Of a DNA stretch of 64,000 bases, positions 4,839-54,201 are shown piece after piece; position 1 is the stretch's first letter, and each line of letters starts with the position of its first letter. Made by a program: the position numbers and the translations under genes. Under the pieces are notes generated by a model. The model saw nothing but the letters and a program-made list of their open reading frames with translations. It made no database searches and was not told the DNA's origin. Source of the stretch: Citromicrobium bathyomarinum (GTDB taxonomy: Bacteria; Pseudomonadota; Alphaproteobacteria; Sphingomonadales; Sphingomonadaceae); the NCBI RefSeq assembly GCF_021021475.1, contig NZ_JAINWL010000001.1:806001-870000 (forward strand), given 5' to 3'.

Positions 4839-5228
4839 ATGATCGTCTCCCCCCGCCTTGCCCGCTTCGCGCGGATCGCGCTGGTCGTGGCCGCGCTGGG
4901 TGCCTTCGCGCTCGCCATCCTGCCGACCGCGCCGGGGCCGGAGAGCATGAACGACAAGGTCAATCACGCCTTTGCGTTCTTCGTCCTCTCCGGGCTCGCC
5001 TATGCCGGGTGGCCCAAAGCAGGCGCGGTTCGAATCTTCGCGCTGCTGACCGCGTTCGGCGGGCTGATCGAGATCGTTCAGGGCCTCGATCTGATCGGCC
5101 GCGATGCGGATATCTACGATCTGTTTGCGGACATAGTCGGGATCGTGATCGGCCTCGTCACCGCGCGGCTGGTGCTGCGTTTTGCGCCCGAACTGACCGA
5201 AGAACTGCGCGAAAAGCTGAGCGACTAG
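4839..5228 (+). CDS. VanZ-like membrane protein
   Basis: A 129-residue protein with four likely membrane spans (about 9-27, 43-60, 67-85 and 92-112) and the VanZ-type pattern KVNHAFAFFVLSGLAY followed by GGLIEIVQ and DIYDLFADIVGIVIGL. Most bacterial VanZ-like proteins of this size have no known function; the name comes from a teicoplanin resistance accessory gene, and no resistance role is implied. It follows atpC by 40 nt and may be the last gene of the operon. It converges with the HNH gene only 9 nt away. Confidence 0.8.
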   Translation: MIVSPRLARFARIALVVAALGAFALAILPTAPGPESMNDKVNHAFAFFVLSGLAYAGWPKAGAVRIFALLTAFGGLIEIVQGLDLIGRDADIYDLFADIVGIVIGLVTARLVLRFAPELTEELREKLSD

Positions 5229-5237
5229 CGTCCTTCG

Positions 5238-5540
5238 CTAACGCGTCGGCGCGTGGAAATCGGGCGGCTTGTCCGCGATCCAGCGCACGAATTTCGCCAA
5301 CGCCGGATTGTCCTTCAGCCGCTCCGGATCGTCGCCGATCCTGGCCAGCTGCGCATTGGTGAAATTGGCGTGGATCGTGCGGTGGCAGATCGGGTGGACG
5401 GGCACGGTCGCCCGCCCCTTCTTCGCCTTGGGCACCGGATGATGCCATTGCAGCCGGGTCGCTATGGGCCGCCCGCATAGCCAGCAGACGAGCGGACCAT
5501 CATCGCGCCCGGTCCCGGATGCCTTGCGGCTAGTCGTAAT
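5238..5540 (-). CDS. Small HNH-type zinc protein (start uncertain)
   Basis: The reading frame encodes a zinc-ribbon/HNH fold: CWLCGRP near nt 5469-5486, then QWHHPVPKAKKGR, then VHPICHRTIHANFTNAQL, and a conserved-looking tail ending PPDFHAPTR. The only ordinary start codon inside the frame is GTG at 5433-5435, which would remove the CxxC pair and the HH dipeptide. The true start must therefore be further upstream. No ATG, GTG or TTG is seen there; ATT at 5538-5540, overlapping the upstream gene by 11 nt, is the best candidate (100 residues). Nuclease activity is plausible from the HNH motif but unproven. Confidence 0.7.
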   Translation of the reverse strand: MTTSRKASGTGRDDGPLVCWLCGRPIATRLQWHHPVPKAKKGRATVPVHPICHRTIHANFTNAQLARIGDDPERLKDNPALAKFVRWIADKPPDFHAPTR

Positions 5541-6147
5541 AGAACAGCTCGTCCGCGACGCCGCCGTAGGAATCGCCCGCCATCACATCGACCGATTCGA
5601 TCTTGGCGGTGCAATTGCGCTCGGCAATCACATCGCCGCCGCGCACCACCAGCACGCCATCGGTGAATTCGGGCTTGTTGCCCTCTTCATCGAAGCCGGT
5701 ACGCACGGTGCGGCTATAAACGATATAGCGCACGCCGCCATTGGCGAACTCTATCTGAGCCTCGCCACCGCCCGAGTAGGCCACGCTGGCAAAGCGCCCA
5801 CCGTCGAGCACGATCTCGGGCTTGCCCGAACCGCCGAACCGATACTGCGCGGTCTTCTGCCCCTGCGCATTGGTGACGCCGCATACGGCGATCCGCTTGG
5901 TACCGGCTGCGCAGGAAAACAGCTCCCGCTCGTCGGATGCGCAGGCCACCTTCGCCACAGCGGGAGATTTCTCATCGACCGAAGCATCGGCTTGCGCAGC
6001 GTCCTCTTGCGCCCCGGAAGCCTCGTCCGCAGCCTTCGCGGGAGCTTCGACGGCGTAATCCGCGCTCGCCCCGCTGGTTTCCGCGGTAGCATCGCCACAA
6101 GCCGCCAGCGCAAGCGCACCGCAGCCGACCAGAATCATTCTCTTCAC
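5530..6147 (-). CDS. Lipoprotein of unknown function
   Basis: A 205-residue protein with a signal peptide and lipobox LAAC (Cys17), then a low-complexity Ala/Glu/Ser-rich linker to about residue 60. The C-terminal domain carries several cysteines (KVACASDERELFSCAAG, VCGVTNAQG, ERNCTAK) that could form disulfides in the periplasm. No named family is recognised. The ATG overlaps the glmU stop by 4 nt (ATGA), so it is translated from the glmU mRNA. Confidence 0.85.
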   Translation of the reverse strand: MKRMILVGCGALALAACGDATAETSGASADYAVEAPAKAADEASGAQEDAAQADASVDEKSPAVAKVACASDERELFSCAAGTKRIAVCGVTNAQGQKTAQYRFGGSGKPEIVLDGGRFASVAYSGGGEAQIEFANGGVRYIVYSRTVRTGFDEEGNKPEFTDGVLVVRGGDVIAERNCTAKIESVDVMAGDSYGGVADELFYYD

Positions 6148-29189: not shown

Positions 29190-30199
29190 GTTTCGTGATC
29201 CGCCCGTCGCGCGAAGACGACCTTGAACACCTGTACGAAATGGCCAAGCTGACCGGCGGCGGCTTCACCAACCTGCCCGCCGATCGCGATGCGCTGACGG
29301 GCAAGCTTGAACGATCGGCCAAGGCCTTCGCCAATACGGGCGACGAGCTGGTCGACGAGACCTTTCTGCTGGTGCTGGAGAATACCGAGACCGGCGCGGT
29401 GCGCGGCACTTGCCAGCTGATGACGCAGGTCGGCCAGCAATGGCCGTTCTATTCCTACCGCCTCAACACGCTGACCCAGTACAGCCAGGAACTGGACCGC
29501 ACGGTGCGCGCAGAAATGCTGCATCTGGTGACCGATCTGGAAGGGTGCAGCGAAGTCGGCGGGCTGTTCCTCCACCCCAATGAACGCGCCGGAGGCCTCG
29601 GCCTGCTGCTCGCGCGCAGCCGCTACCTGTTCATCGCGATGCACCGCCAGCGCTTTGCCGAGCGCGTGCTGGCGGAGCTGCGCGGGATCATCGACGATCG
29701 CGGCGGATCGCCCTTCTGGGACGGGGTCGCCGGGCGCTTCTTCGGGATGACCTTCCAGGAGGCCGACTATTTCAACGCGATCAACGGCAACCAGTTCATC
29801 GCCGACCTGATGCCCAAATATCCGGTCTATGTCGCAATGCTGGACGACGATGCACGCGAGGTGATCGGCCTGCCCCACCCCACCGGCCGCGCGGCGATGC
29901 GGATGCTGGAGAAGGAAGGCCTGCGTTTCGAAGGCTATGTCGACATCTTCGACGGCGGTCCGACCATGCTCGCGCGGACCGACGATGTGGTCTCCGTCGC
30001 CGATGCCGCGCCGCGCACACTCGGCAAGACCGGGCTCGATGGCGGCGAGCGCGCGCTGCTCGCGTCCGGCAAACTGACCGATTTCCGCTGTTGCTACGGA
30101 TCGCGCGAGCTCGCTGACGACAGCGTCGCAATCGACGCTGCGGGCGCGGATGTGCTGCAGGTCGGCGAAGGCGATACGGTGTGGAGCGTGGCGAAGTAG
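29186..30199 (+). CDS. astA: Arginine N-succinyltransferase
   Basis: First step of the arginine succinyltransferase (AST) catabolic pathway: succinyl-CoA plus arginine. It is 337 residues. Family hallmarks are FVIRPSREDDLEHLYEMAKLTGGGFTNLP at the N-terminus, FLHPNERAGGLGLLLARSRYLF (acyl-CoA binding), GIIDDRGGSPFWDGVAGRFFGMTF and FIADLMPKYPVY. It starts inside the preceding peptidase gene with a 4-nt overlap; the start codon is GTG. astB follows after a palindromic repeat. Confidence 0.95.
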   Translation: MSFVIRPSREDDLEHLYEMAKLTGGGFTNLPADRDALTGKLERSAKAFANTGDELVDETFLLVLENTETGAVRGTCQLMTQVGQQWPFYSYRLNTLTQYSQELDRTVRAEMLHLVTDLEGCSEVGGLFLHPNERAGGLGLLLARSRYLFIAMHRQRFAERVLAELRGIIDDRGGSPFWDGVAGRFFGMTFQEADYFNAINGNQFIADLMPKYPVYVAMLDDDAREVIGLPHPTGRAAMRMLEKEGLRFEGYVDIFDGGPTMLARTDDVVSVADAAPRTLGKTGLDGGERALLASGKLTDFRCCYGSRELADDSVAIDAAGADVLQVGEGDTVWSVAK

Positions 30200-30210
30200 C
30201 GCGCCCCAAC

Positions 30211-30312
30211 CAGACCCGTTCGGGCTGAGCCTGTCGAAGCCCTGCTCTTTTTCGGGCGCGGGTCCAAATGTCAAAAACAGCCCTTCGACAAGCTCGGGGC
30301 GAGCGGAGTCTG
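30211..30312. repeat. Intergenic palindromic repeat, family C
   Basis: Left arm 30211-30244 (CAGACCCGTTCGGGCTGAGC..., then CTGTCGAAGCCC) and right arm 30279-30312 (GGGC-less CAGCCCTTCGACAAG, then CTCGGGGCGAGCGGAGTCTG) are imperfect inverted copies around a 34-nt centre. Elements of this sequence type, with TTCGACAAGCTC cores, are widespread between genes of sphingomonads. It fills the astA-astB gap, and its last bases touch the astB start. Confidence 0.85.
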
Positions 30313-30314
30313 GA

Positions 30315-31565
30315 ATGCCTCTCAAAGAGATCAATTTCGACGGGATCATCGGCCCCTCGCACAATTATGCGGGGCTGAGCCTCGGCAATATCGCCAGCGC
30401 GAGCCATCGCGGGCAGACCAGCCACCCGCGCGAGGCGGCGTTGCAGGGTCTCGCCAAGATGCGCGGCAACATGCAACGCGGCCTGCCGCAAGGCTTCCTG
30501 CTGCCGCTCCCGCGCCCCAATCCGGTGCTGGCAGATGCTCTCGCGCTCGACGAGACTGCCGATCCCGCGCTGCGCGCCGCGCCGTGGTCCGCCTCCAGCA
30601 TGTGGACCGCCAATGCGGCGACCGTCAGCCCTGCGCCCGACACCGCCGACGGGCGCTGCCACCTGACGCCCGCCAACCTGATCACCATGCTCCACCGCGC
30701 GCAGGAGTGGCAGGACACCAAGGCCCAGCTCGATATCGCCTTCGGTGACCCGAAGCACTTTGCCGTGCACGATGCAGTGCCGCCAACCTTCGGCGACGAG
30801 GGCGCGGCCAACCACATGCGCCTGTGCGAGAGCCACGGCGAGGCGGGCGTCGAGGTGTTCGTCTATGGCAAGCCGGGCGGCAAGTTCCCCGCGCGCCAGC
30901 ACGAACAGGCCAGCCGCGCGGTCGCGCGCATGCATGGGCTCGATCCGAAACGCACGGTGTTCATCGAACAGAACCCCGAAGCGATCGAGGCGGGCGCCTT
31001 CCATAACGACGTGGTCGCGGTAGCGAACGAGCGCGTGCTGTTTACGCATGCGCGCGCCTTCGCCGATCCGCAGGGGGCCTACGGCGCGATCCGCGAGGCT
31101 TTCCCCACGCTCGAACTGATCGAAGTGCCCGAGAGCGCGGTGAGTCTCGAAGAGGCGATCCGCACCTATCTGTTCAACGCGCAGTTGCTCACCCTGCCCG
31201 ACGGCACCATGGCGCTGGTCGTGCCGAGCGAGTGCCGCGAGTCGACAAGCGTGTGGGGCTTCTGCGAGCAGATGACCGCGGGCAATGGCCCCATCCGGCA
31301 GGTGATCCCGGTCGATGTGCGCCAGTCCATGGCCAATGGCGGCGGCCCCGCCTGTCTGCGCCTGCGCGTGGTCGCCGACCCCGCGACGGTCGATCCGCGC
31401 TTCCTGCTCGACGAGGCGAAGGCGAGCCGAATCGAGGCGGTCATCGCCGAGCATTGGCCCGAAGCGATCGAACCGGCCCAGCTTGGCACCGATGCGCTGA
31501 GCGAACAGGTCCGCGCGGCACGCGGCGCGCTGCTCGACGCGCTCGATCTCACCGAATTAGGGTAA
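30315..31565 (+). CDS. astB: N-succinylarginine dihydrolase
   Basis: Second AST step: converts succinylarginine to succinylornithine, CO2 and two ammonia. It is 416 residues. It begins INFDGIIGPSHNYAGLSLGN, and catalytic residues lie in HDAVPPTFGDEGAANHMRL, the conserved GAFHNDVVAV and the Cys of NGGGPACLRLRVV. The ATG at 30315 is selected by homology; the region just upstream (GGAGTCTGGA) is part of a palindromic repeat. astC, astD and astE are not in the window. Confidence 0.95.
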   Translation: MPLKEINFDGIIGPSHNYAGLSLGNIASASHRGQTSHPREAALQGLAKMRGNMQRGLPQGFLLPLPRPNPVLADALALDETADPALRAAPWSASSMWTANAATVSPAPDTADGRCHLTPANLITMLHRAQEWQDTKAQLDIAFGDPKHFAVHDAVPPTFGDEGAANHMRLCESHGEAGVEVFVYGKPGGKFPARQHEQASRAVARMHGLDPKRTVFIEQNPEAIEAGAFHNDVVAVANERVLFTHARAFADPQGAYGAIREAFPTLELIEVPESAVSLEEAIRTYLFNAQLLTLPDGTMALVVPSECRESTSVWGFCEQMTAGNGPIRQVIPVDVRQSMANGGGPACLRLRVVADPATVDPRFLLDEAKASRIEAVIAEHWPEAIEPAQLGTDALSEQVRAARGALLDALDLTELG

Positions 31566-32099: not shown

Positions 32100-32449
32100 T
32101 GGGGGATTCTGTTGCTAGGCTCCCCCGGGCCCCCGGTATCCGTTCTGTTGCCCGGTCGGTCCAACCGCGCTTTAGCTTTGTAAATTCAGGCCGTTAGGCC
32201 ATCAAATTACGCAGCGAGAGCGAGTGCTTCGTTATCGTTGGCACTTGTGAAATAAGCTTTTTACGGAGTGCTCATTCCGGGCAAAAACGATGCCTTTCAA
32301 CGCATGTCGATCCTGGTTCGGCCCCATCAGGAAGCCCGCCCCTCTCGCTATCGGGACCGGGCCTTTTGGTGGAGCCGCCGGGTACTGCCCCCGGGTCCAT
32401 TGCGTCTATTATACACCGCCATTTATCACCATAGCCGGCCGAAACCGGC
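32100..32449 (-). ncRNA. ssrA: Circularly permuted two-piece tmRNA
   Basis: Rescues ribosomes stalled on broken mRNA. Read on the minus strand: an acceptor piece starts near 32449 with a GCCGG/CCGGC hairpin, has a T-arm (32394-32378, loop GGCAGUA) and ends GGCUCCACCA at 32367. A 41-nt intervening segment follows. The coding piece then starts GGGGCCG at 32325. GGGGCC pairs with GGCUCC, giving the G3-U wobble recognised by alanyl-tRNA synthetase; CAUGCGU (32306-32300) pairs with ACGCAAUG (32405-32398). The tag frame 32242-32207 encodes ANDNEALALAA then TAA. The 3' end is approximate, set by a GGGGGA/UCCCCC stem closing at 32101. Split, permuted ssrA is a hallmark of alphaproteobacteria. Confidence 0.93.
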
Positions 32450-32456
32450 ACCGACC

Positions 32457-32484
32457 TATATAGGCGCTGCGCGCTGAATGTGAA
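32457..32484 (-). promoter_or_regulatory. Probable ssrA promoter
   Basis: On the minus strand TTCACA (32484-32479), a 16-nt spacer and TATATA (32462-32457) sit so that transcription would begin near 32450, exactly at the first hairpin of the acceptor piece. A TATAAT at 32413-32408 is inside the RNA, next to a paired strand, and is not taken as the -10 box. Confidence 0.65.
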
Positions 32485-43240: not shown

Positions 43241-45067
<1,827 letters not shown>

Positions 45068-45073
45068 GCAGCT

Positions 45074-48061
45074 TCAGGCGGAGGCTTCGGCCTCCGCCCT
45101 TTCCTGATTGAGCCGGAACAGGCGGGCGAGGATTTCGTCCTCCGCCCCGTCGATCCATTCCGGCAGCGCGTCCGGTGACGCCTTGTTCTTGAACAGGTTA
45201 CCCCAGCCATAGGCATCGGCGACAGCTACATCGAGCGCGCGATGCGCGTTGTCGAGCCATGTCGGGCGAGCATTGTACAGGTTGGTGAGGGTGCGTTTCT
45301 TCAACTCCTTCGCCGCAGCCTCATCCTTCGGCAGGATGCGGTCGGGATAACCTTCAACCACCTCGGGCACACGCTCGATCCACTCCGGCGGGTTAAGCCA
45401 GTTTTCCCGCAGTTCGTTGAGCCGTGCCGCCGCTGCCGCAATGGCGTGCGCGCGCGGATCAGCGGCATAGTCGGCAGCGGGAATGTCGGGCGTCAGGCCT
45501 TCGGGGAATGGGAAAGTCTCGAAGGTTGTTGAGGGCGTGTAGCGAGGACGATCCTCGAGCGCCGTACCCATGCGCAATGCCCATAGCTCGTGGAAACGAC
45601 TGTGCAGAATACCGAAGGTCGTGTCGTCATCGCGGGCTATTGCCACCGTGGCAGAGTCAGCAACGACCGCAGATGCGCGCCAAACAAATAGGCGGTGCTT
45701 CGATACCCTTGGAGTCACGATCTGTCTTTGCAAACCGCAAAGGGCGCCCCTGAGTTCAGGGCGAGCGCGCCACAGGCGCCACCAATATTTGTTGAGAGCC
45801 TCATTATCGCGTTTTGCCCTGAAGGGCTTCACCCGTTCAGCAGCTATAGTCCAAGGCCGTTCGTATAAAGATGCTGTTGTCTCGGTCGCGTCGTCCGCAA
45901 ACGCAATGATCCATTGATCCGACGACCGGCGCGTAATGTCCTGCCCATTTGTCCACGGCCTAACCACATCACGATTAAATGATCCGTCCGGATTGCTCGG
46001 CTGCTGGACCAACTGCCGCGCTTCATCACCTGATATTTGGAATGGGCCATAGCTTATGACACCCTGAAACGCACACTCGCTATTTGAGGACAACTTTATT
46101 GCCTTGGTCAAATCGACGGTCTCAATTCCGCCAGTGAGGTCCGAATAGATTTGAGGAACTCGACAGCCATTAAGCAGCCCGGGCTCGCCATGAACCTTGT
46201 CGAAGCACACAATCGAGACTCGAACGGCAGCTCCATCGACTGTCCATTTTTCATCACTCAAGGCCTCGAAAACCCGCCCTCCGGCGACCACCGGCTTCAG
46301 AACTTCGCGGTTAGCACCGCCTCTGATTGAATTGGTTGCAACCAAACCTGCCCGCTCGAGTCGATTATCTCTTATCCTCTCCCATGCCTTAGCAAACCAA
46401 TAGCAAACAAGATCGGCACCGCCTGGTACAGTGCCAGAGTATGCGTGTCGCAAACTTTCCGCATACTTCGCGCCCAGTTCAGGGACGATCTTGCGATCCC
46501 CGAGAAACGGTGGATTCCCGACCACCACGTTCGCTTCTGGCCATTCCGCTCGGCAAGGCCTACCCTCTTCATCCAGCACGGGGTCGCCCTGCTTGTCCGT
46601 CACCAGCACGGCATCGCGGTTCTCGATATTGCCGAGCGGTTTGAGAATGGGATTCTTCGCCGCTTCGAAGCCGTTCCGCCGCATCCACTGGATTTCGCCT
46701 ATCCAGACAGAAACCCGCGCCAGCTCCGCCGCGTAGGTGTTCAGCTCAATGCCCAGCACACATTCTGGACCCACCGTAGGTGAGAACCGGCCTAAACCAA
46801 ACTGTTCGGCTTCCAAGTTGACGAGGTGCTCAATATCCTTGAGTGCCAAAAGTGCCAGATACAGAAAATTTCCCGACCCACACGCTGGATCGAGCACACG
46901 AAAATTGCGAAGCCGGTCGATGAACGCTCCGTGCAACTCTTGTGCGCCTTTTAACGCCTTAGCCTCCGCCCGTCGCGCAGCGGCGTAGACTTTTTTCGCT
47001 TCACTCTGTCTGGCCGGAGTCCGGCTTCTGGCTTCTTCAGCTTTACGGATATTCGCTTCGATTTCGTTACGAATAGCCTCCCAATCAGCCGTGAGTGGAC
47101 GAACAATCACCGGCTCTACGATCTGCATAATCTTGTCGCGGTCGGTGTAGTGCGCCCCCAACTGGCTGCGCTTGTCAGGGTCCAGCCCACGCTCGAACAA
47201 GGTGCCGAGGATTGAAGGGTCGATTTCCGACCAGTCCAGCGCGGCAGCGGCAATCAGGTTGTCAATGTCCGCGCGCTCCAGCGGCAAGGCGCTGTCATCG
47301 TCGAAGAGGCCACCGTTGAACCAATCGATGGGAGTAAAACCGACGCGCCCGTTCTTCTTGGCCATGGCCCGGAAAAGCTGGCTGGCATTCTCCGTGAAAC
47401 TATCCGCATCGCCGATGCTTGCCTTCAGCATGGCGGTGAACATGTGGCCGGGCAGTAACCCGACGTCCTCGGCAAACATGCAGAAGACCAACCGGTTTAC
47501 GAAGTGCGCGACGGCATGGGCCTCGTGCCCCCGCTTGCGCAGCCGCTGCGCCAGTTCGGAAAATTCCTCGGCAGCTTCCTCGGTTAGCATCTGCCGCGTC
47601 TTGGCAGGCTTCAATTGCTCGGGGTCGAGGAAGCAATTGCGCAGGAGGTCGCGCGTCGCGCCGTCCCGCAGATCGTCCAGCCGAACTTCGTGGACCTCCT
47701 GAACCGTGTTGGTCCAGTTCGTGTGAATGCGAAAGCGATCCATGTCGCACACGATCAGCAGCGGCGGATTTTCCAGCGCGATGGCGTATTGCTGAAGCTG
47801 CGCAAAGGCGCGGTCGAGGTCCTTCTTCTTGCCCTTGTATTCCCAGGCAAAGCATCCCTTGCGCCAGACATCGGCCCAACCTTCGCCGCCGCCGGTCTTC
47901 GACGCGCCCTTCTCGAAGGTGAACCACTCCCCCTTCGGGTCGACGCTGGCGGGCTTGGGGATGTCCAGCAGTTCGCATAGGTCGAGGAAGTGTTCCTGCG
48001 CCGCGCTACGCTCTTTCAGCTCTGCGGCGTGCCACTTCTTGATAAACTCGGTCGGTGTCAC
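45074..48061 (-). CDS. MmeI-like single-chain restriction-modification enzyme (Type IIL/IIG)
   Basis: A 995-residue fusion of nuclease, methyltransferase and target recognition. N-terminal nuclease motif D64-x9-E74-Y-K76 has exactly the MmeI spacing. A helical spacer runs to about residue 310 (LGAHYTDRDKIMQIVEPVI). The SAM site DPACGSGNFLYLALL is at 391-405 and the catalytic GNPPF at 515-519 marks an N6-adenine methylase. The target-recognition part lies near 630-860, and the matching DNA (about 45480-46420) is visibly less GC-rich than its surroundings. No separate restriction or specificity gene adjoins, as expected for this class. Target sequence unknown. Convergent with typA. Confidence 0.9.
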   Translation of the reverse strand: MTPTEFIKKWHAAELKERSAAQEHFLDLCELLDIPKPASVDPKGEWFTFEKGASKTGGGEGWADVWRKGCFAWEYKGKKKDLDRAFAQLQQYAIALENPPLLIVCDMDRFRIHTNWTNTVQEVHEVRLDDLRDGATRDLLRNCFLDPEQLKPAKTRQMLTEEAAEEFSELAQRLRKRGHEAHAVAHFVNRLVFCMFAEDVGLLPGHMFTAMLKASIGDADSFTENASQLFRAMAKKNGRVGFTPIDWFNGGLFDDDSALPLERADIDNLIAAAALDWSEIDPSILGTLFERGLDPDKRSQLGAHYTDRDKIMQIVEPVIVRPLTADWEAIRNEIEANIRKAEEARSRTPARQSEAKKVYAAARRAEAKALKGAQELHGAFIDRLRNFRVLDPACGSGNFLYLALLALKDIEHLVNLEAEQFGLGRFSPTVGPECVLGIELNTYAAELARVSVWIGEIQWMRRNGFEAAKNPILKPLGNIENRDAVLVTDKQGDPVLDEEGRPCRAEWPEANVVVGNPPFLGDRKIVPELGAKYAESLRHAYSGTVPGGADLVCYWFAKAWERIRDNRLERAGLVATNSIRGGANREVLKPVVAGGRVFEALSDEKWTVDGAAVRVSIVCFDKVHGEPGLLNGCRVPQIYSDLTGGIETVDLTKAIKLSSNSECAFQGVISYGPFQISGDEARQLVQQPSNPDGSFNRDVVRPWTNGQDITRRSSDQWIIAFADDATETTASLYERPWTIAAERVKPFRAKRDNEALNKYWWRLWRARPELRGALCGLQRQIVTPRVSKHRLFVWRASAVVADSATVAIARDDDTTFGILHSRFHELWALRMGTALEDRPRYTPSTTFETFPFPEGLTPDIPAADYAADPRAHAIAAAAARLNELRENWLNPPEWIERVPEVVEGYPDRILPKDEAAAKELKKRTLTNLYNARPTWLDNAHRALDVAVADAYGWGNLFKNKASPDALPEWIDGAEDEILARLFRLNQERAEAEASA

Positions 48062-48384
48062 TCGCGTCTCCCTAATCTGGAAGTCTTAGCGCAGCGGAGT
48101 CGCCGGACAACCCGATGATTTTCCTACTCCCCCGCGCGGCGCTATAGCTGGCATTGCTCTTTGTCCGCTCTTTGTCATCGTCCCGCTCCGGCGTTCCTCG
48201 CCCCTCCCGCGCGTTGATCGAACCGCTCGATCAGTCGCGCACCGCTGATCGGTTTGATTTCTCCCTTTAGACACTGTGTCAGGTGTGTCAGGCCTCGGAT
48301 CGACGCGCGCTCCGGTGGCCGCTTGCGGGGCACTTTCCAGCCCACGGTGGCCAAAGCGCTCAGCATCCGTTAACCAGCGCCGCC
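48062..48384. other. 323-nt intergenic region
   Basis: Between the divergent restriction-modification gene and the symporter gene. No gene or clear promoter is seen. A perfect tandem duplication of TGTGTCAGG occupies 48275-48292. Confidence 0.5.
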
Positions 48385-49881
48385 ATGCAGACAGGCGTAC
48401 TCATCTCACTCGCAGCCTATTTCGTCCTCATGCTGGCGATCGGGCTATTTGCTTGGAAGAAATCGACCGATACCTCGGAAGGGTATCTGCTCGCCGGACG
48501 CGGGCTGTCGCCGGGGGTGGCGGCGCTCTCCGCCGGGGCGTCGGACATGTCGGGCTGGCTGTTGCTGGGCCTGCCCGGCGCGCTCTACGCCGCCGGCCTG
48601 GTCGAAGCTTGGATCGGCATCGGCCTGTTCCTGGGCGCGGTGCTCAACTGGACGATCGTCGCGCCGAGACTGCGCGAACAGACCGAACGGCTGGGCAATG
48701 CGCTGACCATTCCGGAGTTCATGGCCAACCGCTTCCCCAGCCGCGCGGTGGCGCTGCGGGTGGTCTCCGCGATCGTGATCGTGGTGTTCTTCATGGTGTA
48801 CTCCGCCGCAGGCCTGGTCGGCGGCGGCAAGCTGTTCGAAACCGCCTTCCCCGCGCTGCTGCCCGATACGGGGTTGAGCGACTACATGATGGGCGTGTGG
48901 ATCACCGCGGGCGTGGTGCTGGCCTACACGATGGTGGGCGGGTTCCTCGCGGTGAGCCTGACGGACTTCGTGCAGGGGGTGATCATGCTGCTGGCGCTGG
49001 TGGTGATGCCGCTGGTGGTGATGTTCGGCCCCGGCGGGAGCGCGGGCGACAGCCTGACCGAGATCCAGCCCGGCTTCCTCAGCCTGACGCAGGGGCTGAC
49101 CGCGATCGGCTGGCTCAGCGCGGTGACCTGGGGCCTGGGCTATTTCGGGCAGCCGCACATCATCGTGCGCTTCATGGCGATCCGCTCGATCCCCGAGGTC
49201 GCGACGGCGCGCAATATCGGGCTGATCTGGATGTTCGTGTGCCTGCTCGGCTCGCTGGGCATCGGGCTCGCGGGGCGCGCCTATGCGGACCGCAACGGGA
49301 TCGTGGTCGACGATCCGGAGACGATCTTCGTGGTGCTGGCGGACCTGCTGTTCCACCCGCTGGTGACCGGCTTCCTGCTCGCCGCGCTGCTGGCCGCGAT
49401 CATGAGCACGATCTCCTCGCAGCTGCTGGTCTCGTCCAGCTCGCTGACCGAGGATTTCTACCGCCTGTTCCTGCGCCGCGATGCGAGCGAGCGTGAGGCG
49501 GTGAACGTGGGCCGCGTCAGCGTGCTGATCGTGGCGTTGGCCGCGATCTGGGTCGCGAGCGATCCGGAAAGCGAAGTGCTGGGCCTGGTCGCCAATGCCT
49601 GGGCCGGGTTCGGTGCCGCATTCGGGCCGCTGATCCTGCTCGCCCTGGTCTGGCCGCGGATGACCGGGTCCGGCGCGCTCGCCGGGCTGGTGGTCGGCGC
49701 GCTGACGGTCGGTATCTGGATCGCGCAGGGCTGGAACAGCGAGTTCCTGGGCGGCCCGGGCGTGTACGAAATCATCCCCGGCTTCATCGCCTCGACCATC
49801 GCGGTCGTATTCGTCAGCCTCGCCACCAAGGAAGAGGATCTGGGCCACTACGCGGTCGAGGGCGAGCCCGAGGCAGCTTAG
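48385..49881 (+). CDS. putP: Sodium/proline symporter (SSS family)
   Basis: Sodium-coupled uptake of proline at the inner membrane. It is 498 residues with about 13 predicted spans. PutP-type features: SEGYLLAGRGLSPGVAALSAGASDMSGWLLLGLPGALY in the first spans, TERLGNALTIPEFMANRF, GLGYFGQPHIIVRFMAI and the sodium-site helix AALLAAIMSTISSQLLVSSSSLTEDFY with conserved Ser residues. The ATG at 48385 begins MQTGVLISLAAYF; the longer frame lacks homology. A proline substrate is inferred from overall similarity. Confidence 0.92.
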   Translation: MQTGVLISLAAYFVLMLAIGLFAWKKSTDTSEGYLLAGRGLSPGVAALSAGASDMSGWLLLGLPGALYAAGLVEAWIGIGLFLGAVLNWTIVAPRLREQTERLGNALTIPEFMANRFPSRAVALRVVSAIVIVVFFMVYSAAGLVGGGKLFETAFPALLPDTGLSDYMMGVWITAGVVLAYTMVGGFLAVSLTDFVQGVIMLLALVVMPLVVMFGPGGSAGDSLTEIQPGFLSLTQGLTAIGWLSAVTWGLGYFGQPHIIVRFMAIRSIPEVATARNIGLIWMFVCLLGSLGIGLAGRAYADRNGIVVDDPETIFVVLADLLFHPLVTGFLLAALLAAIMSTISSQLLVSSSSLTEDFYRLFLRRDASEREAVNVGRVSVLIVALAAIWVASDPESEVLGLVANAWAGFGAAFGPLILLALVWPRMTGSGALAGLVVGALTVGIWIAQGWNSEFLGGPGVYEIIPGFIASTIAVVFVSLATKEEDLGHYAVEGEPEAA

Positions 49882-51939: not shown

Positions 51940-52314
51940 ATGGCGAGAGTGACGGGCCTGGGCGGCGTATTCTACGTCGTGAAAGATCCCGCTGCGACAC
52001 AGCGGTGGTATGAAGAAATGCTCGGCCTGACCGGCGATTAGGGCCCGCAGATCCCATGGTCGAACGAGCCGCACGCAGCGCCCTACTCGCTGATCAGCCA
52101 CTTCGCGGACGACAAGTATATCGAACCCGGCAAGGGCGGCTTCATGATCAACCTCAGGGTCGATGATTGCGACGCGATGGTCGAGCAGTTGAAGGCCAAG
52201 GGGGTCGAGATCTTCGGTCAGGTCGATGAAGGCTATGGCAAGTTCGCCTGGCTGCTCGACCCCGACGGGGTGAAGATCGAGTTGTGGGAACAGGGCGACA
52301 CGCGCGATTCCTGA
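51940..52314 (+). pseudogene. VOC/glyoxalase-family gene with an in-frame amber codon
   Basis: From ATG 51940 (behind GGGAGAGG) the frame reads MARVTGLGGVFYVVKDPAAT, continues to LGLTGD, then hits TAG at 52039-52041 (codon 34). The same frame goes on without another stop to TGA at 52312-52314 with a complete VOC domain: GPQIPWSNEPHAAPYSLISHF, GFMINLRVDDCDAMVEQL, VEIFGQVDEGYGKFAWLLDPDGVKIELWEQ. A single change of a TAT or TAC tyrosine codon explains the stop. Metal ligands (Glu in IELWEQ) are intact, so inactivation is recent, or the base is a sequencing error. Confidence 0.85.
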
Positions 52315-52386
52315 CCACTCGCCACTCAGGGTTCTCACGTGCTAGACCGGCGCGGGGTCGCGCGATTGGGGGGAGTTAATCCGGGT

Positions 52387-53412
52387 ATGATTGCGCATCT
52401 GATGCCGCGCGCCGTGCTTCTGGCAACGGCTGGCTTCCTGCTCGCCAGCCCGATCGCCGCGAACGATTCCGAGGCCGAGATTTCGGTGGGCGGGATCACC
52501 CTCACCCCCTCGGGCGACCTCAGGCTGGTCAGCGAAGACCTGTACCTCTCCGCCGACAAGGTGACGGTCGACTACCTGTTCGAGAACCCGACCGGCCGTG
52601 CGATCACCACCACCATCGCTTTTCCGATGCCATCGCAACCGCGCGGGATGCTGGCGCGCGGGGGTTATTACGAGACGAGCGAGGACTGGTCGGGCTTCGG
52701 CTTCGCCACCCGGATCGACGGACGGCCCGTGCGCCTGCTGCAAATGGACCGCGCGAGGATCGGCGACCGCGACGTGACCGAACAGGTCATCGGCAACGGC
52801 TGGCCGGTCTACTGGACCGATACGATCGACGGCAATCCCTTCGCCAACGTGCCGGGCGCGCGGCTCGCCACACCGCTGGCCGATGGCATGGCGATCCGTG
52901 ATCCGCTGTTCGAGGATCGGGTGGTGCCCGCGTGGGAGGGGATCACCTATTTCGTGCGAGAGCAGACTTTCCCGCCCAACTCGAAAACCCGCGTAAACCA
53001 CGAATATGCGCCGATGACCGGCGGCAGCGTGGGCGGCGCGCTGTACCCGCAATATCGCGAGGACGACGAGTGGGGCACGCTGGCCGAATATCGCGGGCGC
53101 TACTGTGTCGACGACCATTTCCTCGCCGGGGTCGACCGTCGTCTGGCCAAGGCGGCGCGTGGCGCGCAGGACCAAGCATATATGCAGGAGACGTGGCTCG
53201 GCTACGTCCTGTCATCCGGGGCCAACTGGAACGGCCCGATCGAACGCTTCCGGCTGGTGGTGGACAAGGGATCACCCGACAATCTGGTCAGCTTCTGCAT
53301 GGTTGACGTGACGAAGATCGGTCCCACGCAGTTCGAAGTCGTGAAGACCGACTTCGAACCGACGCGAGACCTGAATGTGCTTATCGTGGAATTCTACAGC
53401 CCAGCCGATTGA
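52387..53412 (+). CDS. DUF4424 family exported protein
   Basis: A 341-residue secreted protein: signal peptide (PRAVLLATAGFLLASPIAAND) then SEAEISVGGITLTPSGDLRLVSEDLYLSADKVTVDYLFEN, the DUF4424 N-terminus, with FPPNSKTRVNHEYAP and a C-terminal GPTQFEVVKTDFEPTRDLNVLIVEF. The function is unknown. An upstream GGGGGGAG is 12 nt from ATG 52387; ATG 52402 is an alternative that still keeps the signal peptide. Confidence 0.85.
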   Translation: MIAHLMPRAVLLATAGFLLASPIAANDSEAEISVGGITLTPSGDLRLVSEDLYLSADKVTVDYLFENPTGRAITTTIAFPMPSQPRGMLARGGYYETSEDWSGFGFATRIDGRPVRLLQMDRARIGDRDVTEQVIGNGWPVYWTDTIDGNPFANVPGARLATPLADGMAIRDPLFEDRVVPAWEGITYFVREQTFPPNSKTRVNHEYAPMTGGSVGGALYPQYREDDEWGTLAEYRGRYCVDDHFLAGVDRRLAKAARGAQDQAYMQETWLGYVLSSGANWNGPIERFRLVVDKGSPDNLVSFCMVDVTKIGPTQFEVVKTDFEPTRDLNVLIVEFYSPAD

Positions 53413-53415
53413 GGC

Positions 53416-54201
53416 CTACTGGAAAGCCTGGAAATTGGGCTGGCCGTTCGATGCGCTGACTCCGCCATCCACGGGCAGGTTCACACCGGTGACGTGGCGC
53501 GCATCCTCGCTGGCAAGGAAGGCGACCACCGCCGCGACATCCTCCGGCTCGCCCGCGCGGCCCAGCGGGATGCGGCGCAGGAAGGCGTTGTACAACTCGT
53601 CGTTATCACGAATGCCCTCGCTCATCTCGGTCTTGGTCATCGAGGGACACACCGCGTTCACGCGGATGCCCTGATTGCCCAGTTGCAGCGCAAGGCCGCG
53701 CGTCAGGTTCGTCACCGCGCCCTTGCTCGCGTTGTAGATCGGCATGGTCCAGTCGCCGCCGGTGCCAGACACGCTGGAGGTGTTGACGATCGAGCCGCCG
53801 CCGGGCGCGTCACTCTTGGCGAGGTGCGGGATCGCGGCGCGGCACAGGTACAGGACGCCCTTCACGTTGATGTCGATCACTGTGTCGATATCGTCGTCGC
53901 TCGCCTCGGCAAGTGGGCCTGCCGTCGCGGTGCCCGCATTATTGACCAGGCAATCGAGCCCGCCGAACCGCTCGACAGTGCGCGCGACCAGTTCCTTCGC
54001 GAAGGCGGCGTCTGATACGTCCCCCTCCACCAGCAGCGTGCGGGCATCGTCCAGATCGCTCGCCACGCTCTCCAGATCATCGCGGCTGCGGCTGTTGAGG
54101 ACCACATTGGCACCCTCCTGCGCAAAGCGGCGGGCGATGGCTGCGCCGATCCCCTTGGAAGATCCGGTCACGATCACGGTGCGGTCGGTAAAGCGTTGCA
54201 T
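53416..54201 (-). CDS. SDR family oxidoreductase
   Basis: A 261-residue classical short-chain dehydrogenase: VTGSSKGIGAAIARRFAQEGANVVLNSRS (Asn-Ser-Arg after strand 2 suggests NADP(H)), VNNAGTATAGP, NTSSVSG (Ser), PIYNASKGAVTNLTRGLALQL (Tyr/Lys) and PLGRAGEPEDVAAVVAFLASEDARHVTGVNLPVDGGVSASNG. The substrate is unknown. It converges with the DUF4424 gene 3 nt away. Confidence 0.9.
   Translation of the reverse strand: MQRFTDRTVIVTGSSKGIGAAIARRFAQEGANVVLNSRSRDDLESVASDLDDARTLLVEGDVSDAAFAKELVARTVERFGGLDCLVNNAGTATAGPLAEASDDDIDTVIDINVKGVLYLCRAAIPHLAKSDAPGGGSIVNTSSVSGTGGDWTMPIYNASKGAVTNLTRGLALQLGNQGIRVNAVCPSMTKTEMSEGIRDNDELYNAFLRRIPLGRAGEPEDVAAVVAFLASEDARHVTGVNLPVDGGVSASNGQPNFQAFQ

What the first reader, a model, noticed from the sequence alone, without database searches (positions are those of the whole stretch)
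45074..48061. Solitary MmeI-like restriction-modification gene with a compositionally distinct recognition region
The nuclease motif D64-x9-E-x-K76 matches MmeI spacing exactly, with SAM and NPPF motifs downstream. The stretch about 45480-46420, corresponding to the target-recognition part, is noticeably AT-richer than flanking parts of the same gene, suggesting that the specificity module was exchanged horizontally.
Basis: partly seen in the sequence, partly recalled or inferred. Interest (0 to 1): 0.52.

Follow-up and report, generated by a model that had tools for sequence, protein, structure and literature searches.

The report
Swappable restriction enzyme at swap site
A one-gene bacterial defence enzyme that cuts foreign DNA carries an exchangeable target-reading middle part, and it sits at a chromosomal spot where close relatives carry quite different DNA-cutting systems, so both the enzyme and its aim appear to be swapped between strains.

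Summary
The gene is real, intact and on the minus strand (GTG start at 48061, stop at 45074; 995 aa). It is an MmeI-family (Type IIL/IIG) restriction-modification enzyme by sequence, motifs and predicted fold. The AT-rich stretch is real: at fourfold sites the query's low segment is residues 535-850 (45512-46459), 0 of 500 shuffles as strong. But the same trough, residues 526-835, is family-wide (lower in 74 of 78), so GC alone does not show that this gene acquired its module. Exchange is shown otherwise: trees of backbone and module conflict, and AU tests reject keeping the query with its backbone sisters. Outside the given coordinates, the gene sits in a slot between typA and putP. In 7 of 10 genomes of the genus a recognised restriction gene or system fills it, of four kinds; one holds a motif-only candidate, one an unknown gene, one none found. 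A genome of the same species has C5-methylase + Vsr + EcoRII-type there and no MmeI. Enzyme: ordinary member. Slot: a new example of a known kind of defence-exchange locus, with module swapping nested inside. Specificity and activity are untested.

The parts
45074..48061 (-). MmeI-family (Type IIL/IIG) restriction-modification gene, 995 aa, GTG start
   Evidence: Pfam MmeI_N, MmeI_hel, MmeI_Mtase, MmeI_TRD; PADLOC PDLC03627, 1050 bits; profile vs 5hr4 E 1.9e-73
47834..47872 (-). nuclease motif D64-x9-E74-x-K76
   Evidence: invariant in 31 sequences
47144..47158 (-). GAHYT (302-306); H304 corresponds to MmeI His314, which stacks on the flipped adenine
   Evidence: role from PMC4833311
46862..46891 (-). 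SAM-binding motif I DPACGSGNFL (391-400)
46505..46516 (-). catalytic motif IV NPPF (516-519); left anchor of the exchangeable module
45557..46486 (-). exchangeable specificity module (residues 526-835): rest of the methylase plus TRD, low synonymous GC
   Evidence: family change-point, tree conflict and AU tests, DNA mosaic
45542..45556 (-). E836-D-R838-P-R840, equivalent to MmeI E806/R808 (base 6 = C) and R810 (base 4 = purine)
   Evidence: alignments; rules from PMC4833311; query residues
45650..45655 (-). S803-A804, equivalent to MmeI N773/A774 (bases 3 and 4)
   Evidence: rules
45707..45709 (-). R785, equivalent to MmeI E751 (base 3; R/K tends to G)
   Evidence: rules
45077..45098 (.). 9-bp hairpin with TTCG loop just after typA; it encodes the last residues AEAEASA of the enzyme
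   Evidence: -22.9 kcal/mol, z -3.6; present also in congeners without an intact MmeI gene (G001, G002, G005)
45061..48115 (.). variable slot: replaced as a block in a genome of the same species (G060)
   Evidence: BLAST break points 45060 and 48116; content of G060
43241..45067 (+). typA (bipA), conserved left border
48286..49881 (+). putP, conserved right border

Best explanation
The gene encodes a complete MmeI-type enzyme. One polypeptide binds an asymmetric site through its TRD, methylates the N6 of one adenine on one strand to mark host DNA, and, when two copies meet on unmodified sites, its N-terminal PD-(D/E)XK domain cuts about 20/18 nt downstream (mechanism from the family literature; not tested here). 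By homology to the MmeI contact residues the site should end in 5'-...RAC-3', perhaps ...GRAC-3', with the A methylated (inferred; last base most secure, third base weak). Residues ~526-835 behave as a cassette that relatives exchange between conserved anchors (NPPF on the left, RYTP...FETFPFPEG on the right), which would change cutting and methylation specificity together (exchange shown by tree conflict; the effect on specificity is inferred). The whole gene sits in a typA-putP slot in which restriction genes of different kinds replace each other among congeners and even within the species (replacement shown; homologous recombination in the shared flanks is the inferred route, because the slot of the query holds no integrase, transposase or flanking repeat that I could find).
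For: Four MmeI Pfam domains and best PADLOC hit REase_MTase_IIG; profile hit to MmeI 5hr4 E 1.9e-73; AlphaFold model pLDDT 86, best PDB fold match 5hr4, TM 0.74-0.75 by target length. Catalytic residues intact. Module: the query backbone is sister to L015 (84% identity, support 97) but L015's module groups with L003/L045/L047 (support 100); module data reject query+L015 (p 0.0027), query+L015+L014 (p 1e-67) and query+L015+L014+L002 (p 8e-6); backbone data reject L015+L003+L047+L045 (p 2e-15). Pairs with 0.88-0.90 backbone identity but 0.45-0.50 TRD identity. Same-slot DNA mosaic against L002: residues 51-200 0.81-0.92, 501-850 0.39-0.52, 851-995 0.84-0.93. Slot.
Against: No methylome, expression or restriction data. 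One backbone pair with strongly reduced module identity (L022/L037, 0.90 vs 0.50) still groups together in the module tree, so part of the divergence is fast evolution, not import. The AU tests used quick trees under a simple model, on the first 44 of 75 usable sequences. Which partner received the new module (query or L015) is not resolved; the query's own module has no close donor in the set (best 56% identity). Outside the genus, the ORFs searched between typA and putP were not restriction genes. The correspondence to MmeI contact residues is weakest at bases 1-3.
Confidence: 0.8

Rival explanations
1. The AT-rich middle is not imported but reflects local constraint: fast diversification under selection, weaker codon optimisation, or slower translation between domains lowers synonymous GC at the same place in every member.
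For: The trough is family-wide at the same residues; the slope of module GC4 on backbone GC4 is 0.63, so it still follows the host partly; some pairs diverge in place without regrouping (L022/L037).
Against: Fourfold sites are free of amino-acid constraint; the same interval shows phylogenetic conflict, which constraint alone does not give. The two causes can coexist.
Confidence: 0.3
2. The slot is an integration site of a mobile element, and the restriction genes are its cargo.
For: Contents differ between congeners and within the species, with sharp borders.
Against: In the window and in G060 the interval holds only the restriction gene(s); no integrase or transposase turned up among the profile-searched ORFs of the slots and no long flanking direct repeat in the window (two chance-like pairs of 14-16 nt); no tRNA at the border (one search finds only a tmRNA at 32116-32462). 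The leftover of an earlier MmeI gene at the border of G005 looks like overwriting, not excision.
Confidence: 0.15
3. The enzyme now works only as a methylase (a regulatory or orphan modification enzyme), with restriction lost.
For: Nuclease activity is untested; 5 of 83 family members carry an in-frame stop, so decay occurs in the family.
Against: D64, E74, K76 and the other catalytic residues are intact and the frame is open.
Confidence: 0.1

Closest known systems
MmeI (Methylophilus methylotrophus; PDB 5hr4), Type IIL
   Same: Domain order nuclease - helical spacer - gamma methylase - TRD - helical C-terminus; D-x9-E-x-K; NPPF; E-x-R-x-R base-6/4 contacts; best fold match
   Different: 995 aa against 919; about 21% identity over the fold alignment; a long helical linker at ~308-385; R785/S803 in place of E751/N773
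Enteric immigration control region (hsd-mcr-mrr, between yjiA and yjiN; PMC12707154)
   Same: Fixed chromosomal borders with interchangeable restriction systems and no mobilising gene at the border
   Different: Here Type II/IIG-sized cassettes of about 3 kb between typA and putP, in another group of bacteria; the enteric locus holds Type I and IV systems
TRD exchange in Type I hsdS (PMC3874165 passages)
   Same: Recombination between conserved stretches swaps the recognition part
   Different: Here the module lies inside a single chain that also cuts and methylates, and includes the C-terminal part of the methylase domain

Membership tests
MmeI family (Type IIL R-M enzymes) | Sequence membership: MmeI_N, spacer, MTase and TRD domains in one chain | tested here: met
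   all four above the curated cut-off
MmeI family (Type IIL R-M enzymes) | PD-(D/E)XK site with D-x9-E-x-K | tested here: met
   spacing from PMC4833311
MmeI family (Type IIL R-M enzymes) | gamma-class 6mA motifs DPACG.GNFL and NPPF, and His314/Trp570 equivalents | tested here: met
   H304, W606, NPPF invariant in 31 sequences, aligned
MmeI family (Type IIL R-M enzymes) | Fold of 5hr4 | tested here: met
   model pLDDT 86.1, pTM 0.71; Foldseek top hits 5hr4_J and 5hr4_C
MmeI family (Type IIL R-M enzymes) | m6A on one strand only of an asymmetric site | not testable with these tools
   no methylome at hand
MmeI family (Type IIL R-M enzymes) | Cleavage about 20/18 downstream, needing two sites | not testable with these tools
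   biochemistry needed
Restriction exchange locus (immigration-control-region type) | Same conserved borders in related genomes | tested here: met
   typA and putP about 1.8-4.5 kb apart in all 10 genomes of the genus
Restriction exchange locus (immigration-control-region type) | Different restriction systems replace each other | tested here: met
   7 of 10 genomes by family profiles or homology; same-species pair G000/G060 differs
Restriction exchange locus (immigration-control-region type) | No dedicated recombinase at the border | tested here: inconclusive
   none in profile-searched slot ORFs, no repeats in the window; not every slot ORF was profile-searched

The most novel reading that the evidence does not exclude
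Two nested layers of exchange: a dedicated chromosomal socket (typA-putP) in which whole restriction systems overwrite one another by recombination in shared flanks, and inside the MmeI allele a second socket (residues 526-835, between NPPF and the RYTP...FETFPFPEG anchor) through which specificity modules circulate among alphaproteobacteria and beyond as a gene pool only loosely tied to the host genome, as its family-wide low synonymous GC suggests.
Probability: 0.4. Interest if true: 0.62.

Novelty: new member of a known kind. Interest (0 to 1): 0.45.

Why it matters
Single-chain R-M enzymes can change aim without killing the host because cutting and marking share one recognition domain. For the MmeI family the text I read stresses changes of contact residues as the route (PMC4833311 sections, PMC3874165 passages). 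Here the approximate borders of a naturally exchanged module are mapped by three signals (synonymous GC, identity, tree conflict), which gives a design for chimeras; and a compact swap site used across a genus offers closely matched strains that differ in which restriction system they carry, useful for testing what restriction does to phage resistance and gene flow.

Tried and rejected
GC dip as proof of exchange: rejected as a stand-alone argument because it is family-wide.

In-frame stops in relatives as a possible switch or recoding: 5 of 83 family members carry a single in-frame stop (L034 at R570, L015 at E599, L086 at R614, L041 at S616, L037 at W717, query numbering, numbering checked). 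They cluster, but codons, residues and places differ; in a wider look one more case had the same sequence context as L034 and another was the natural stop, while other truncations lay elsewhere (L162, L166). Read as independent decay, not pursued.

The 799-aa gene of G001 as an MmeI relative: profile comparison finds none (probability 1.2%); no Pfam, NCBIfam, PADLOC or PDB match beyond chance. It is kept only as a motif-level candidate (see Noticed in passing).

Restriction slot beyond the genus: typA and putP lie within about 14 kb also in G010, G012, G016, G022, G023 and G033; the ORFs that I profile-searched there were not restriction genes (four of G010; six ORFs of G016, G022, G033 and G023, with weak partial PADLOC hits only). 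Not every ORF there was searched, none of G012.

Literature: searches listed no paper on a typA-putP restriction site or on naturally exchanged modules mapped in MmeI-family enzymes; only open-licence papers are held, few of the listed papers were opened, and the 2009 MmeI-family paper is not held. Papers seen: PMC4833311 abstract, Introduction, Results parts 1-2 of 3, and DNA Cleavage; PMC12707154 passages and its section on defense islands; passages only of PMC3983042, PMC3091717, PMC3874165, PMC4919336; the rest as search listings.

Full report
What is there. The open frame 45074-48061 lies on the minus strand, 995 codons from a GTG at 48061, without internal stop. It hits MmeI_N, MmeI_hel, MmeI_Mtase and MmeI_TRD in Pfam, all above cut-off, and a Type IIG restriction-methylase model of PADLOC over nearly its whole length with 1050 bits. 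NCBIfam has no hit. A profile of 31 sequences finds MmeI 5hr4 with E 1.9e-73. The AlphaFold model (pLDDT 86.1, pTM 0.71) matches 5hr4 first (TM 0.74-0.75 by target length), before CamA, DrdV, BpuSI and BrxX. One copy exists in the genome. The genome is not otherwise free of restriction: a C5 methylase, Vsr and an MvaI/BcnI-type nuclease gene lie together on contig 6.

Active sites. D64-x9-E74-x-K76 has the published MmeI spacing (PMC4833311). H304, motif I 391-400, NPPF 516-519 and W606, of which H304, NPPF and W606 are equivalents of residues that hold the flipped adenine in MmeI, are invariant in 31 sequences. Expression and activity are untested.

The GC dip. GC falls to 0.52 at 45900-46349. 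At fourfold-degenerate sites the best low segment of the query is residues 535-850, window 45512-46459 (0.52 against 0.78; none of 500 shuffles as strong). After dropping five near-identical rows, 74 of 78 have lower GC4 in the TRD (Wilcoxon p 6e-14), and the family's own low segment is residues 526-835 (0.63 against 0.81). The trough starts just after NPPF, ends before the conserved RYTP...FETFPFPEG stretch, and includes the last part of the methylase. It is smaller in genes of low backbone GC (mean difference -0.03 for 4 genes with backbone GC4 under 0.6, -0.20 for 14 genes above 0.9), and TRD GC4 follows backbone GC4 with slope 0.63. This fits modules that come from a shared pool, but constraint is not excluded.

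Exchange. Among relatives, pairs with 0.88-0.90 identity in the backbone may have 0.45-0.50 in the TRD (L022/L037, L028/L042, L023/L045, L027/L038), others 0.81 (L042/L043). Trees of 44 rows (the first 44 of 75 after dropping 8 duplicates or fragments from 83) conflict: in the backbone (444 columns) the query pairs with L015 (support 97) within a group with L014 and L002 (97); in the module (310 columns) L015 goes with L045, L003 and L047 (100) and the query stands alone. AU tests on module data reject query+L015 (p 0.0027), query+L015+L014 (1e-67), query+L015+L014+L002 (8e-6), L028+L042 (0.0036) and L023+L045 (0.0097); L022+L037 stays together; backbone data reject L015+L003+L047+L045 (2e-15). 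At the DNA level the query and L002, which sits in the same slot of a congener, are 0.81-0.92 identical over residues 51-200, 0.39-0.52 over 501-850 and 0.84-0.93 over 851-995. So the part was exchanged somewhere between these sisters; donor and recipient are not resolved.

Specificity forecast. From the alignments to MmeI: E836/R838 correspond to E806/R808, which in the family exclusively specify C at base 6; R840 and A804 correspond to R810 and A774, which allow a purine at base 4; R785 stands for E751, where R or K with D at 773 gave G at base 3, while here 773 is S803 next to D802; L835 and V786 stand for the residues over the base opposite the methylated A (rules: PMC4833311). Forecast...RAC, possibly ...GRAC; bases 1 and 2 not forecast. 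The sisters differ at these places: L014 LGVGNDPRY, L015 LQDRPRY, L002 LGAGNQGRY against LEDRPRY of the query, as expected if exchange changes specificity.

The slot. typA ends at 45067 and putP starts at 48286. In all 10 genomes of the genus typA and putP are neighbours. Contents: G000 (window) MmeI type; G007 MmeI type, 63-66% identical; G005 an HNH restriction-type gene plus a leftover of the 3' end of an MmeI gene (residues 939-986, 81%) still abutting typA; G003, G008 and G060 a C5 methylase, Vsr and EcoRII-type nuclease (the Vsr of G008 is by sequence likeness only); G006 a 1067-aa Type ISP/IIG enzyme. That is 7 of 10 recognised, of four kinds. G001 holds a 799-aa gene without database match but with D35...E44-A-K46, a DMCAGVGNL and an NPPY motif kept in 7 of 7 aligned members: a candidate fused nuclease-methylase, by motif only. 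G002 holds an unknown 469-aa gene. G004 has none among the three ORFs searched. G060 is labelled same species (typA protein 100% identical). Window and G060 are 98.4% identical up to 45060 and 93.7% from 48116 on, with nothing shared between, and G060 has no MmeI match (in one search G000 and G007 match in the same search). By kilobase the pair is mostly 93-99% identical, with 87% at 48001-49000 next to the slot and 80-83% in four other windows, so raised divergence beside the slot is not unique.

Borders. A 9-bp hairpin with TTCG loop follows typA at 45077-45098 (-22.9 kcal/mol, z -3.6); it codes for the last residues AEAEASA of the enzyme in the window and in G007, and is kept in G001, G002 and G005. 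Most relatives elsewhere that I listed end within a few to some twenty residues after an NQ-like LNQ motif, with other letters. Either the gene was joined into a resident terminator or its end was left as a scar; I cannot tell which. The simple terminator scan did not list the hairpin. No flanking repeats beyond two chance-like pairs. Among the 80 loci from named genomes none has typA nearby and one has a distant putP-like hit (L050, 33% identity).

Known kinds. The enzyme is an MmeI-family member by all features testable here. The slot behaves like the enteric immigration control region, where borders are fixed and restriction systems replace each other without a border recombinase (PMC12707154). 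Similar cases in Neisseria and Helicobacter are recalled, from no call. Matches at E 1e-100 or better occur in 25 of 397 family genomes, G000 included, so presence is patchy.

Noticed in passing
L116:1123-3522 (+), genome G001, same slot: 799-aa protein of an unnamed family (found in 9 of 298 family genomes, G001 included) with an N-terminal D...E-A-K, a DMCAGVGNL and an NPPY motif; no Pfam, NCBIfam, PADLOC or PDB match beyond chance. Candidate new kind of fused nuclease-methylase.
   Followed up: partly
L117:3130-4539 (+), genome G002, same slot: 469-aa AT-richer protein without any family match in the restriction slot; possible unknown defence gene.
   Followed up: partly
L015, L034, L037, L041, L086: Five of 83 family members carry one in-frame stop, all between residues 570 and 717 (query numbering), leaving nuclease and SAM motifs upstream.
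   Followed up: partly
window 46802-47161: Second low-GC4 stretch (residues ~301-420), not shared by the family average; the closest backbone relative L015 also has reduced GC3 in the linker.
   Followed up: no
G000 contig 6, 724120-725307 and neighbours (L138): C5 methylase + Vsr + MvaI/BcnI-type nuclease elsewhere in the window's genome, while the same-species genome G060 has its C5 methylase + Vsr + EcoRII-type set in the typA-putP slot.
   Followed up: partly
window 5001-6000, 30001-31000, 52001-54000: Windows of 80-83% identity between two genomes of one species in otherwise mostly 93-99% identical sequence.
   Followed up: no
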